A stretch of 35,043 nucleotides of DNA from an uncultured Elusimicrobium sp. (GTDB lineage Bacteria > Elusimicrobiota > Elusimicrobia > Elusimicrobiales > Elusimicrobiaceae), in assembly GCA_900319325.1 (NCBI GenBank), contig ONOD01000002.1:1-35043 (forward strand), read 5' to 3'. A program made the translations under genes and the position numbers. This document shows positions 26,312 through 28,321 of the stretch, one piece after another (the stretch's first letter is position 1; every line of letters begins with the position of its first letter). A model generated the notes under the pieces. It had not been told where the DNA came from and ran no database searches. It saw only the letters and a program-made list of their open reading frames with translations.

Positions 26312-26845
26312 GTGAGAGATCTTGCGAAACTATTTTTTATTTTTGCCAAAATTGGGCTGTTTACTCTGGGCGGCGGGTATGCCATGTTGCCACTGATGGA
26401 GCGCGAATTAGTGGGGAACTATCTTTCACACGAAGATTTCCTGGATATTACCGCAGTGGCGCAATCTGCCCCCGGTATTATGGCCATCAATGTGGCTATT
26501 TTAACGGGATATCGTTTGAAAGGGCTGACGGGAGCTGCGTTCGCAGCGTGTGGGGCGGCGCTTCCTTCGTTTGTCATCATCTTATGCGTGGCTTTGTTCT
26601 TCCGCAAATTTGCCGAAAATCCAATTGTGGTGCGTGTGTTTAAAGGGATCCGCCCAGCGGTAGTAGCGCTTATCATGGTGCCTGTATTTACTTTAGCTAA
26701 AAGCGCCGGAGTTACGTGGAAAACGGTGTGGATCTGTGCGGTGGTGGCCCTGGCTGTGTGGTTGCTTAAAATGTCCCCGGTATATGTAGTAATACTCGCC
26801 GTATGGGTGGGGATCCTTTGTGATCGTAAGGAGCGCACTCAATGA
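26312..26845 (+). CDS. CHR-family (chromate-type) transporter, first half-size subunit
   Basis: A short CHR protein of 177 residues with the family start FFIFAKIGLFTLGGGYAMLP near 8-27, AQSAPGIMAINVAILTGY near 51-68 and five to six membrane helices. Half-size CHR proteins are usually encoded in pairs that act together; the substrate may be chromate or another anion. The start is GTG: an in-frame TAG at 26297 and no other start codon between leave 26312 as the only option. No SD is visible. The stop overlaps the next start by 4 nt (ATGA). Confidence 0.88.
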   Translation: MRDLAKLFFIFAKIGLFTLGGGYAMLPLMERELVGNYLSHEDFLDITAVAQSAPGIMAINVAILTGYRLKGLTGAAFAACGAALPSFVIILCVALFFRKFAENPIVVRVFKGIRPAVVALIMVPVFTLAKSAGVTWKTVWICAVVALAVWLLKMSPVYVVILAVWVGILCDRKERTQ

Positions 26846-27360
26846 TTTATTGCAAGCTCTTTTTAACATTTTTGAAGATTGGATTATTCAATTTTGGCGG
26901 TGGGTACGCCATGATTTCGTTTCTGCAAAACGAAGTGGTATATAAGCAGGCGTGGCTTTCTACAGCAGAGTTCACTGACATTGTAGCCATTAGCCAAGTA
27001 ACCCCGGGCCCGGTGGGAATCAATTTAGCTACCTATACTGGATATGCAGCCAGTGGAAGTGTGTGTGGGGCGGTAGCGGCGACATTGGCCGTTTGCCTTC
27101 CTTCGTTTGTGCTGCTTGTGTTGGCGGGAAAATATGTGTTTGCCACGCGAACGAATTACCCGGCTGTATGGCGTGCTTTGCGTTTGGTAGTGATTGGGTT
27201 GATTGCCTCGGCTGCGCTTACACTTTGCAATGCAGAAAACTTTATAGACTACAAAAGTGTATTATTGTGTGTGGTGGCATTTTGGGCAGTATGGAAGTTA
27301 AAGTGCGGGCCCATTTGGATACTGGTAATGAGTGGGTTTTTAGGAATTTTGTTATATTGA
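26842..27360 (+). CDS. CHR-family (chromate-type) transporter, second half-size subunit
   Basis: The partner of the preceding gene: 172 residues with FLKIGLFNFGGGYAMISFLQ near 10-29, AISQVTPGPVGINLATYTGY near 49-68 and five to six membrane helices. The two halves share GGGYAM and the PG(I/P).xxN motif but diverge elsewhere, as expected for the N- and C-type halves of full-length ChrA. Translation is probably coupled through the ATGA overlap. Substrate unproven. Confidence 0.88.
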   Translation: MIYCKLFLTFLKIGLFNFGGGYAMISFLQNEVVYKQAWLSTAEFTDIVAISQVTPGPVGINLATYTGYAASGSVCGAVAATLAVCLPSFVLLVLAGKYVFATRTNYPAVWRALRLVVIGLIASAALTLCNAENFIDYKSVLLCVVAFWAVWKLKCGPIWILVMSGFLGILLY

Positions 27361-27405
27361 ACTAACTATTTTATAAGATATTTTTAACTTGTTTTTAGAA
27401 GGAAA

Positions 27406-27428
27406 AAATATTTTTATAAAAAATATTT
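27406..27428 (+). terminator. Weak AT-only hairpin after the CHR pair
   Basis: AAATATTTTT (27406-27415) pairs with AAAAAATATTT (27418-27428). It consists only of A-T pairs and lies 46 nt after the stop. It could contribute to termination but is not a strong signal, and it abuts the -35 of the next gene. Confidence 0.25.
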
Positions 27429-27455
27429 GTTAGTTTTAACTAACTTTTGTATAAT
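27427..27455 (+). promoter_or_regulatory. Promoter with a palindromic operator candidate
   Basis: TTGTTA (27427-27432), 17 nt, TATAAT (27450-27455) forms a good sigma-70 type promoter. GTTAGTT-TT-AACTAAC (27429-27444) lies between and partly over these elements, the classical position for a repressor site. A further AACTAAC half-site occurs at 27360-27366. Expected start near 27462, with AAGGA before the ATG at 27480. Confidence 0.6.
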
Positions 27456-27479: not shown

Positions 27480-28220
27480 ATGAAATACACAAGTTATATT
27501 AAAACCCTGCTAGCAGCCGCACTATTAAATCTGTCTGCTGCTGCATTTGCACAAAATTCGCGCTTGCCTAACAATGTAGAACGATCTGTCGCTTCCGCAC
27601 AAGCGCAAGCTCAACAAGCTCAAGAAGCCGCAGTCTCTATTACCGCTACGTTTCAAAAGGCAGTTAAAATGTCAGATGTGATGTGTCGGCGTCCGCGTTG
27701 TAAAGATCAGATTATCTCGTATGAGACCAAAACAAATATTTGTCGCGGAACACTCGCCAAAAGCGGCGTGCGTGTATATACTACGGCCAACTGTATGCGG
27801 CATAAGGATTTTGCGTTATCTACAGTAACGCTTAAATTTGCTAATGGCCGTACGGCCTCAGGTGGCCATGGCGCTGTTGGCTTCTCGGGAGATATTGCCT
27901 ATGTAGCGGTGCAAGCAAGCGTTACCCGTGGCCTCAATGGGCTAGATTTTGCTGTTATCCCGCAAGGGAAAAGCCTTATGGACGTGTTCGGGAATGAAAT
28001 AGAAAGCTTTTTGTTGAGTTTCTTTCACGAAAAGGGAGTACCGGCCCACAGAAGAGCCCGTGTCGGTCGCATATCTACGCGTCATCCTACGGTGAAATTG
28101 GGGGACCCTGTTTTATATAACGGTAAAGTGATTGCCCTAGTAAAACAAGTTCCATACATATTTCGTCGTGGCCCTTTTGGCGGAGTAAGTGAAAAACCCT
28201 TTGCAATTATCCGTTTATAA
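27480..28220 (+). CDS. Secreted degenerate trypsin-fold (S1-like) protein
   Basis: A signal peptide (to AAFA-24) leads into a Gln/Ala-rich helix (35-55) and a region that follows the S1 serine protease pattern: ICRGTLAKSGVRVYTTANCM (87-106) in place of C-GTL-...LTAAHC, GDIAYVAV (137-144) in place of DIALL, and LGDPVLYNGKVIALV (207-221) in place of GDSGGPLF-G. The catalytic His is Asn104, Asp138 may be kept, and the Ser loop is lost. Cys88 and Cys105 would match the conserved disulfide. It is therefore probably not a protease. Monocistronic, with its own promoter and terminator. Confidence 0.6.
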   Translation: MKYTSYIKTLLAAALLNLSAAAFAQNSRLPNNVERSVASAQAQAQQAQEAAVSITATFQKAVKMSDVMCRRPRCKDQIISYETKTNICRGTLAKSGVRVYTTANCMRHKDFALSTVTLKFANGRTASGGHGAVGFSGDIAYVAVQASVTRGLNGLDFAVIPQGKSLMDVFGNEIESFLLSFFHEKGVPAHRRARVGRISTRHPTVKLGDPVLYNGKVIALVKQVPYIFRRGPFGGVSEKPFAIIRL

Positions 28221-28272: not shown

Positions 28273-28308
28273 AAAAGCACCCTCAAAATTAATTTGAGGG
28301 CGCTTTTT
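28273..28308. terminator. Bidirectional intrinsic terminator
   Basis: AAAAGCACCCTCAAA (28273-28287) pairs with TTTGAGGGCGCTTTT (28293-28307) with one A-C mismatch and loop ATTAA. T-runs exist on both strands, fitting its place between two convergent genes (stop at 28220 on the plus strand and at 28322 on the minus strand). Confidence 0.85.
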
Positions 28309-28321
28309 ATGTAGCGCAAAG

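What the first reader, a model, noticed from the sequence alone, without database searches (positions are those of the whole stretch)
27480..28220. Secreted protein with a trypsin-like frame but lost catalytic residues
The TAAHC, DIAL and GDSGGP blocks are replaced by TANC, GDIA and GDP, so His and Ser are gone while the flanking pattern and the Cys pair remain. An exported, separately regulated pseudo-protease suggests a binding or decoy role.
Basis: partly seen in the sequence, partly recalled or inferred. Interest (0 to 1): 0.5.

Follow-up and report, generated by a model that had tools for sequence, protein, structure and literature searches.

The report
Dead protease under iron-uptake control
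A little-known bacterium exports a protein that is predicted to be shaped like a digestive protease but lacks its cutting residues, and the gene carries the same control element as the bacterium's iron importer, so it is probably a metal-shortage protein that works by binding rather than cutting.

Summary
The 246-aa ORF at 27480-28220 has a signal peptide, the chymotrypsin Cys42-Cys58-like pair, Asn for His57, the Asp kept (GDIA) and no Ser195 block. The predicted fold (pLDDT 90.8) is the double beta-barrel, nearest HtrA/Deg proteases (Z about 11); sequence evidence alone is weak. Matches occur in 56 of 340 genomes of the phylum searched, all in the window's Elusimicrobiota genus. None of 55 rows has the catalytic His.

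The context is new. The gene sits after paired CHR transporters. Its protein diverges fast and is reduced to the first barrel in two separate clades (21 of 60 loci read). Yet its promoter keeps an exact TTGTTAG-N6-CTAACTT element in 55 of 55 loci; three genomes without the gene lack it. In the own genome (87% complete) the exact core occurs only before this gene and its paralogue. The next best site precedes feoB, and all 45 feoB loci examined (of 63 genomes with feoB) carry it. An MntR/DtxR-type repressor is present in 61 of 66 genus genomes.

Best reading: an exported, cationic, non-catalytic pseudo-protease made with FeoB when iron or manganese is scarce. Regulator binding is inferred; the ligand is unknown.

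The parts
27480..28220 (+). Secreted pseudo-protease gene, 246 aa
27480..27554 (+). Signal peptide, residues 1-25 (AFA-Q cleavage region)
   Evidence: read directly from the translation; similar layout in the relatives
27630..27911 (+). First beta-barrel, residues 51-144; the part kept in short orthologues
   Evidence: strands in the model; three near short orthologues align up to window residue 144, 144 and 151; divergent short forms
27927..28217 (+). Second barrel, residues 150-246, with a helical stretch at 166-184; missing in 21 of 60 loci read
27741..27743 (+). Cys88, equivalent of Cys42
   Evidence: 26 of 26 rows; aligned with azurocidin
27789..27794 (+). Asn104 (His57 position) and Cys105 (Cys58 equivalent)
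27891..27893 (+). Asp138 (Asp102 position), variable across the family
   Evidence: D in 29 of 54 rows with a residue
28101..28109 (+). GDP (208-210) where GGP stands in serine proteases; the Ser195 position falls on Leu207 in the profile alignment
27427..27455 (+). Sigma70-type promoter: TTGTTA (27427-27432), 17 nt, TATAAT (27450-27455)
   Evidence: spacing 17 (32 loci) or 18 (23 loci) in 55 of 55
27427..27446 (+). Operator-like palindrome TTGTTAG-N6-CTAACTT in the promoter
   Evidence: exact in 55 of 55 slot loci; 0 of 1100 shuffled regions reach 2 mismatches or fewer to AAGTTAG-N6-CTAACTT
27349..27368 (+). Weak second operator-like site (4 mismatches here, not above chance by itself; better copies in other genomes)
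   Evidence: two sites with 3 mismatches or fewer in 43 of 55 loci
28280..28310 (+). Intrinsic-terminator-like hairpin after the gene
26312..26845 (+). First CHR-family (chromate-type) transporter half; conserved neighbour
   Evidence: below NCBIfam cut-offs
26842..27360 (+). Second CHR-family transporter half; the gene lies downstream of it in 56 of 60 loci read

Best explanation
It is an exported, catalytically dead relative of HtrA/trypsin-fold proteases, kept as a non-catalytic protein and transcribed under a metal-responsive repressor. Shown by computation: signal peptide, predicted double barrel, loss of the His and Ser positions throughout the family, purifying selection, two clades that keep only barrel 1, a strongly positive net charge, and a near-invariant element shared with feoB. 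Inferred: an MntR/DtxR-type repressor with Fe2+ or Mn2+ occupies the element inside the promoter, so metal shortage switches on this gene together with the ferrous-iron importer FeoB. Inferred, least certain: outside the inner membrane the cationic first barrel, pinned by a disulphide, binds an anionic ligand or partner (an iron source, envelope polymer, or host or competitor molecule) and needs no proteolysis.
For: Fold: pLDDT 90.8 without templates; best Z 11.0 to HtrA3/HtrA2, all 50 listed rows HtrA/Deg or trypsin-like; Foldseek DegP E 1.1e-4. Dead site: 0 His in 55 rows, GDSGGP replaced. Constraint: dN/dS 0.12 and 0.16 against the two closest orthologues. No need for catalysis: 21 of 60 loci carry a 130-168 aa form ending at or just after barrel 1, the divergent short forms match the long profile at E 1.1e-9, and their model resembles the first HtrA barrel. 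Regulation: element exact in 55 of 55 slot loci, also before paralogues L002, L025, L026, absent in 3 of 3 genomes without the gene; only two exact matches of the core in the own genome, both before family members; feoB site in 30 of 30 plus 15 of 15 loci, two of which (G082, G083) are genomes that lack the slot gene; MntR/DtxR-type protein over cut-off in 61 of 66 genomes, own copy nearest to MntR models; half-site AAGTTAG before 13 of 19 regulator genes read. Charge +7 to +22 in 26 of 26 rows, against -5 to +10.5 in 14 HtrA-like proteins of the genus.
Against: Sequence kinship to S1 is weak: no Pfam trypsin match above cut-off, best E 0.007, in 2 of 26 rows; profile comparison with the genus's HtrA-like proteins is in register, but in a trimmed rerun it scored lower (E 0.075) and 16 of 300 column shuffles reached it. 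Foldseek TM-scores are low (about 0.3-0.4). The short-form model has best Z 7.6, within the range of chance arrangements, and no Foldseek row at E 0.001. No conserved His column exists. The regulator-operator link is by association; the own regulator gene has no site within 2 mismatches in a 4-kb region, and 6 of 19 regulator genes have no half-site. Fur was not searched for. More distant orthologues give dN/dS 0.24-0.35 with saturated dS. One of 17 short-form rows is acidic. L064-L067 paralogues and the second tandem copy in L062 lack the element.
Confidence: 0.6

Rival explanations
1. Pseudo-enzyme regulator: the protein docks on an active HtrA-like or other S1-fold protease of the same cell and switches it on or off, as MamO activates MamE.
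For: HtrA-like proteins with H, D and S exist in the genus; Trypsin_2 matches in 60 of 61 genus genomes searched. MamO, an HtrA-type pseudo-protease, promotes MamE-dependent proteolysis (PMC4794232, abstract and passages).
Against: Short orthologues lack half of the fold. Fast divergence (mostly 28-40% identity where the CHR halves keep about 50-88%) fits a conserved intracellular partner poorly. 14 HtrA-like genes have no copy of the element (best 4-7 mismatches).
Confidence: 0.15
2. Host- or competitor-directed secreted cationic protein (azurocidin-like), switched on by the metal shortage that a host niche imposes.
For: Strong positive charge, fast divergence, best PDB profile row is heparin-binding protein/azurocidin (E 0.74 only), element shared with feoB.
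Against: No evidence that the protein leaves the periplasm; no family match in PADLOC or NCBIfam. E 0.74 is not significant alone. The host is not shown by any search.
Confidence: 0.25
3. Partner of the adjacent CHR transporters, for example a periplasmic binding protein for an oxyanion.
For: Gene downstream of the CHR pair in 56 of 60 loci read. MamO carries a TauE-like transporter domain (PMC4794232, passages).
Against: Own promoter and operator-like element; L059 and L061 lie next to the amidase gene with no CHR match in a 3.7-kb locus; paralogues live elsewhere.
Confidence: 0.08
4. Decaying gene on the way out, with loss of catalysis, then of barrel 2, then of the gene.
For: Absent in 3 of 60 and shortened in 21 of 60 loci read.
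Against: dN/dS 0.12-0.16, element exact in 55 of 55, short forms have intact frames and conserved W, R, C, C.
Confidence: 0.05

Closest known systems
HtrA/Deg (MEROPS S1C) catalytic domain
   Same: Predicted double barrel, Z about 10-11 with 141-165 residues aligned; exported
   Different: No His or Ser, helical stretch at 166-184, no PDZ domain, extra Cys pair, strongly cationic
MamO of magnetotactic bacteria (HtrA-type pseudo-protease that binds transition metal; PMC4794232, abstract and passages seen)
   Same: Degenerate HtrA-type protease domain in a metal-related setting
   Different: MamO has Thr as predicted nucleophile, a surface di-histidine metal site and a TauE-like domain (passages); here no His is conserved and the metal link is transcriptional
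Azurocidin/CAP37 heparin-binding protein (properties recalled; PDB row 1fy1)
   Same: Cationic S1 pseudo-protease with the Cys42-Cys58 pair and His57 replaced
   Different: Animal granule protein; sequence match not significant (E 0.74)
DtxR/IdeR/MntR metal regulons (DtxR consensus TTAGGTTAGCCTAACCTAA, PMC7762939, passage)
   Same: TTAG-N6-CTAA spacing occurs inside that box; feoB among the targets; regulator of this family in 61 of 66 genomes
   Different: Element here is (AA/TT)GTTAG-N6-CTAACTT; a secreted pseudo-protease as a target did not turn up in the paper searches made

Membership tests
S1 / PA-clan serine peptidase (active) | Double beta-barrel chymotrypsin fold | tested here: met
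   Predicted model only; Z 11.0, 164 aligned, rmsd 4.9 to HtrA3 and similar rows
S1 / PA-clan serine peptidase (active) | Catalytic His57 | tested here: not met
   0 of 55 rows
S1 / PA-clan serine peptidase (active) | Catalytic Ser195 in GDSGGP | tested here: not met
   Block reads G in 49 of 49, then D/E in 46 of 49; Leu207 at the Ser position
S1 / PA-clan serine peptidase (active) | Catalytic Asp102 | tested here: inconclusive
   Asp in the window protein and in 29 of 54 rows
S1 / PA-clan serine peptidase (active) | Profile match above curated cut-off | tested here: not met
   None in Pfam for the window protein; 2 of 26 rows match Trypsin weakly, best E 0.007; none in NCBIfam for three members
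HtrA/Deg (S1C) | PDZ domain after the protease domain | tested here: not met
   Protein ends at residue 246 with the barrel; no Pfam PDZ match
MamO-type metal-binding pseudo-protease | Surface di-histidine metal site | tested here: not met
   No His column conserved at 75% in A1
MamO-type metal-binding pseudo-protease | Direct binding of transition metal | not testable with these tools
   Needs purified protein
DtxR/MntR regulon member | Conserved palindromic element overlapping the promoter | tested here: met
   55 of 55 loci exact
DtxR/MntR regulon member | Element shared with metal-uptake genes | tested here: met
   feoB, one mismatch, 30 of 30 and 15 of 15 loci, of 63 genomes with feoB
DtxR/MntR regulon member | Binding of the element by the regulator | not testable with these tools
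   Association only; regulator family present in 61 of 66 genomes

The most novel reading that the evidence does not exclude
A bacterial lineage has turned an HtrA-type protease into a metal-starvation binding protein and, in two clades, reduced it to a stand-alone N-terminal barrel: half of the chymotrypsin fold used on its own as a secreted, metal-regulated capture protein for an anionic iron source or surface.
Probability: 0.3. Interest if true: 0.75.

Novelty: new variant of a known kind. Interest (0 to 1): 0.58.

Why it matters
Trypsin-fold pseudo-proteases are best known (recalled, apart from MamO) from animals and magnetotactic bacteria. Here is a genus-wide bacterial family with no Pfam or NCBIfam name, tied by a shared promoter element to ferrous-iron uptake, in which the protease fold has been reduced to one barrel in some clades. 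If true it gives a dead protease a role in metal starvation, and offers a natural test of what half of the chymotrypsin fold can do alone.

Tried and rejected
Sequence-only proof of S1 kinship: Pfam gave nothing above cut-off; the PDB profile search gave 9 weak rows, all S1-type, E 0.74-2.3; hhalign with the genus HtrA-like set aligned in register (E 0.0087), but a trimmed rerun gave E 0.075 and 16 of 300 column shuffles reached its score. Two earlier versions of that control were faulty (one search used a wrong option, a reference lacking key columns, as L028 has an 8-residue gap) and are not used.

An intact-triad member of the family itself was looked for among 57 rows and not found. An ancestor in the same slot outside the genus was not found: of 10 other genomes of the family searched, one has a distant CHR match, and its surroundings were not read.

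A genome-wide regulon by loose matching is not readable: at two mismatches the pattern occurs about as often as its backward control in many genomes, so only sites with 0-1 mismatch or at fixed places are used. Two further one-mismatch sites (G079 C2, G080 C139) lie beside or in genes with no evident link.

Rows dropped: L027 (504-aa frame, E 0.0023) was left out of A1. G008 and G092 (CHR gene at a contig end) were left out of the slot count, which covers 60 of the 62 genomes with the CHR gene. G072 was set to 'long' by hand from L048 and G082 to 'none' (its slot ORF is a pilin). G013 ends at a contig edge. Weak matches at E 1e-4 to 1e-3, such as the 548-aa frame in G006, are probably signal-peptide matches but are in the count of 56.

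Viral fold library: 3 rows at E 0.001 or better, polyproteins or unnamed, no closer than the PDB rows. PADLOC none for 3 members. Paper searches: 21, 93, 97, 105 found nothing on this combination; others gave listings only; MamO (PMC4794232) was opened from the listing, and PMC7762939 from those.

Full report
What is there. The ORF at 27480-28220 (+) encodes 246 aa with a signal peptide. It has no Pfam match above cut-off and no NCBIfam or PADLOC match. TTANC, GDIA and LGDP replace TAAHC, DIAL and GDSGGP. In an alignment of 26 rows (the window plus 25 relatives) C88, G90 and C105 are invariant and R73 nearly so. In 57 rows, 55 have a residue at the His57 position and none is His; the Ser195 block reads G in 49 of 49, D/E in 46 of 49 and P in 41 of 49 (rows are partly near-duplicates and one, L083, is probably spurious). 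The Asp102 position is D in 29 of 54.

Fold. AlphaFold2 with the 26-row alignment and no templates gives pLDDT 90.8, pTM 0.81. VIA-align finds HtrA3, HtrA2, HtrA1, DegP and DegQ at Z 10-11 (for example 164 residues at 4.9 A to HtrA3, or 146 at 3.1 A to DegQ); the 50 listed rows are all HtrA/Deg or a trypsin-like domain. Foldseek's best is DegP, E 1.1e-4, with low TM-scores. Sequence evidence is weak by itself: nine PDB profile rows, all S1-type, E 0.74-2.3; hhalign to the genus's HtrA-like proteins is in register over columns 86-222, E 0.0087, yet in a trimmed rerun E is 0.075 and 16 of 300 column shuffles reach the score. The kinship therefore rests mainly on the predicted structure plus the in-register motifs.

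Paralogues. The own genome has one paralogue, 35% identical over the matched part. An HtrA-like protein with H, D and S invariant in a 15-row alignment exists. Three proteins with TAAHC lie on contigs or stretches cut before the Ser block.

Distribution. With the family profile, 56 of 340 genomes of the phylum match at E 0.001 or better, all in the window's own genus; some of the weakest are probably signal-peptide matches. Named records of relatives include Elusimicrobia bacterium UBA1436 and uncultured Elusimicrobiales assemblies (11 loci).

The slot. Of 66 genus genomes 62 have the second CHR transporter half at E 1e-30. In the 60 that were read, the place downstream of it holds a long form (219 aa or more) in 35, a short form (130-168 aa) in 21, nothing of the kind in 3, and a contig end in 1. 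Five short forms are near relatives of the window gene; three of them aligned in A1 end at window residues 144, 144 and 151, the end of barrel 1. Sixteen belong to a more divergent clade; these and one tandem copy match the long family profile (E 1.1e-9, probability 96), keep W, R, C and C, and their model (pLDDT 85.6) resembles the first barrel of HtrA proteases: best Z 7.6, 70 residues at 2.0 A, all 50 rows HtrA/Deg or titled serine protease. That Z is in the range where chance arrangements occur; Foldseek's three best rows are Deg1 at E 0.017-0.036, with unrelated rows after them. On a tree of the neighbouring CHR protein the short label needs 5 changes, at least 3 forced by starred branches; that loss rather than gain of barrel 2 explains this is inferred. 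Since the S1 active site lies between the barrels (established knowledge), a one-barrel protein cannot be such a protease.

Selection. Against the two closest orthologues (73% and 59% identical) dN/dS is 0.12 and 0.16; their neighbours give 0.01-0.13, leaving out a first-CHR-half comparison in L051 that hit the wrong half; dS is above 1, so the values are rough. More distant ones give 0.24 and 0.35. Otherwise the protein is mostly 28-40% identical where the CHR halves keep about 50-88%. It evolves fast but under constraint.

Control region. TTGTTA-17-TATAAT lies at 27427-27455. The palindrome TTGTTAG-N6-CTAACTT spans the first hexamer and the spacer. It is exact in 55 of 55 slot genes, with spacer 17 (32) or 18 (23), and is also present in G072. 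Shuffled intergenic regions (single-base shuffles) reach 2 mismatches or fewer to AAGTTAG-N6-CTAACTT in 0 of 1100 trials. Two sites with 3 mismatches or fewer, 23-24 or 63-89 bp apart, occur in 43 of 55. The three genomes without the gene show only 4-5 mismatches. In the own genome (1.27 Mb, 87% complete) the pattern GTTAG-N6-CTAAC-TTTT has two exact matches: before this gene and before its paralogue. The only other site within one mismatch, symmetric, sits directly before a FeoA-FeoB fusion. The feoB site is found in 30 of 30 loci at -22 from the ATG, after a -10-like element, and in 15 of 15 further windows, a few bases before the gene; together 45 of the 63 genomes with feoB, the other 18 not being examined. 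Two of the 45 (G082, G083) lack the slot gene. Fourteen HtrA-like genes, as a control, have 4-7 mismatches.

Regulator. A DtxR/MntR-type protein is above cut-off in 61 of 66 genomes; the own copy scores best with MntR models, below their curated cut-off. AAGTTAG half-sites lie near the start of 13 of 19 of these regulator genes read, drawn from the 20 best-scoring loci; the window's own copy has none within 2 mismatches. The DtxR consensus TTAGGTTAGCCTAACCTAA (PMC7762939, passage) contains TTAG-N6-CTAA. Binding itself is inferred.

Charge. With 25 residues removed, the 26 rows have calculated net charge +7 to +22; short forms +4 to +15 in 16 of 17 and -9 in one; 14 HtrA-like proteins -5 to +10.5. 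No His column is conserved at 75%, so a MamO-like di-histidine site is not supported.

Conclusion. It is best seen as an exported, non-catalytic barrel protein under the metal-responsive switch of ferrous-iron uptake. The ligand or partner remains unknown. The nearest precedent is MamO (PMC4794232, abstract and passages), which is degenerate, HtrA-type and metal-related, but differs in its metal site and TauE-like domain.

Noticed in passing
L033:862-1950 (own genome C74) and L290-L299: S1-fold secreted proteins, many in tandem, with Cys in the nucleophile position: GxCG[GSA]P in 21 of 25 long ORFs that showed either motif, His motif in 22 of 25 (loci chosen from the Trypsin_2 hits). Candidate chymotrypsin-fold cysteine proteases in a bacterium, a type mainly known from RNA viruses (recalled).
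   Followed up: partly
L028:1366-2085 (own genome C121): The own-genome HtrA-like protease lacks eight residues (the TGTGF strand) that 14 of 14 other aligned genus homologues keep, although H, D and S are present.
   Followed up: partly
L064-L067: A further divergent family branch (about 250 aa, HxNC-type motif in most, tandem in L065) outside the CHR slot and without the element.
   Followed up: partly
L164:697-1976: Two tandem short-form copies in one genome; the second is acidic (-8.9) while the 16 other aligned short forms are basic.
   Followed up: partly
L002:469-1170: A 233-aa ORF with a signal-peptide-like start, of unknown kind, divergently oriented to the paralogue with the operator-like element between them.
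   Followed up: no
L250-L269: 13 of 19 MntR-like regulator genes read carry the AAGTTAG half-site near their own start, suggesting self-control in part of the genus only.
   Followed up: partly
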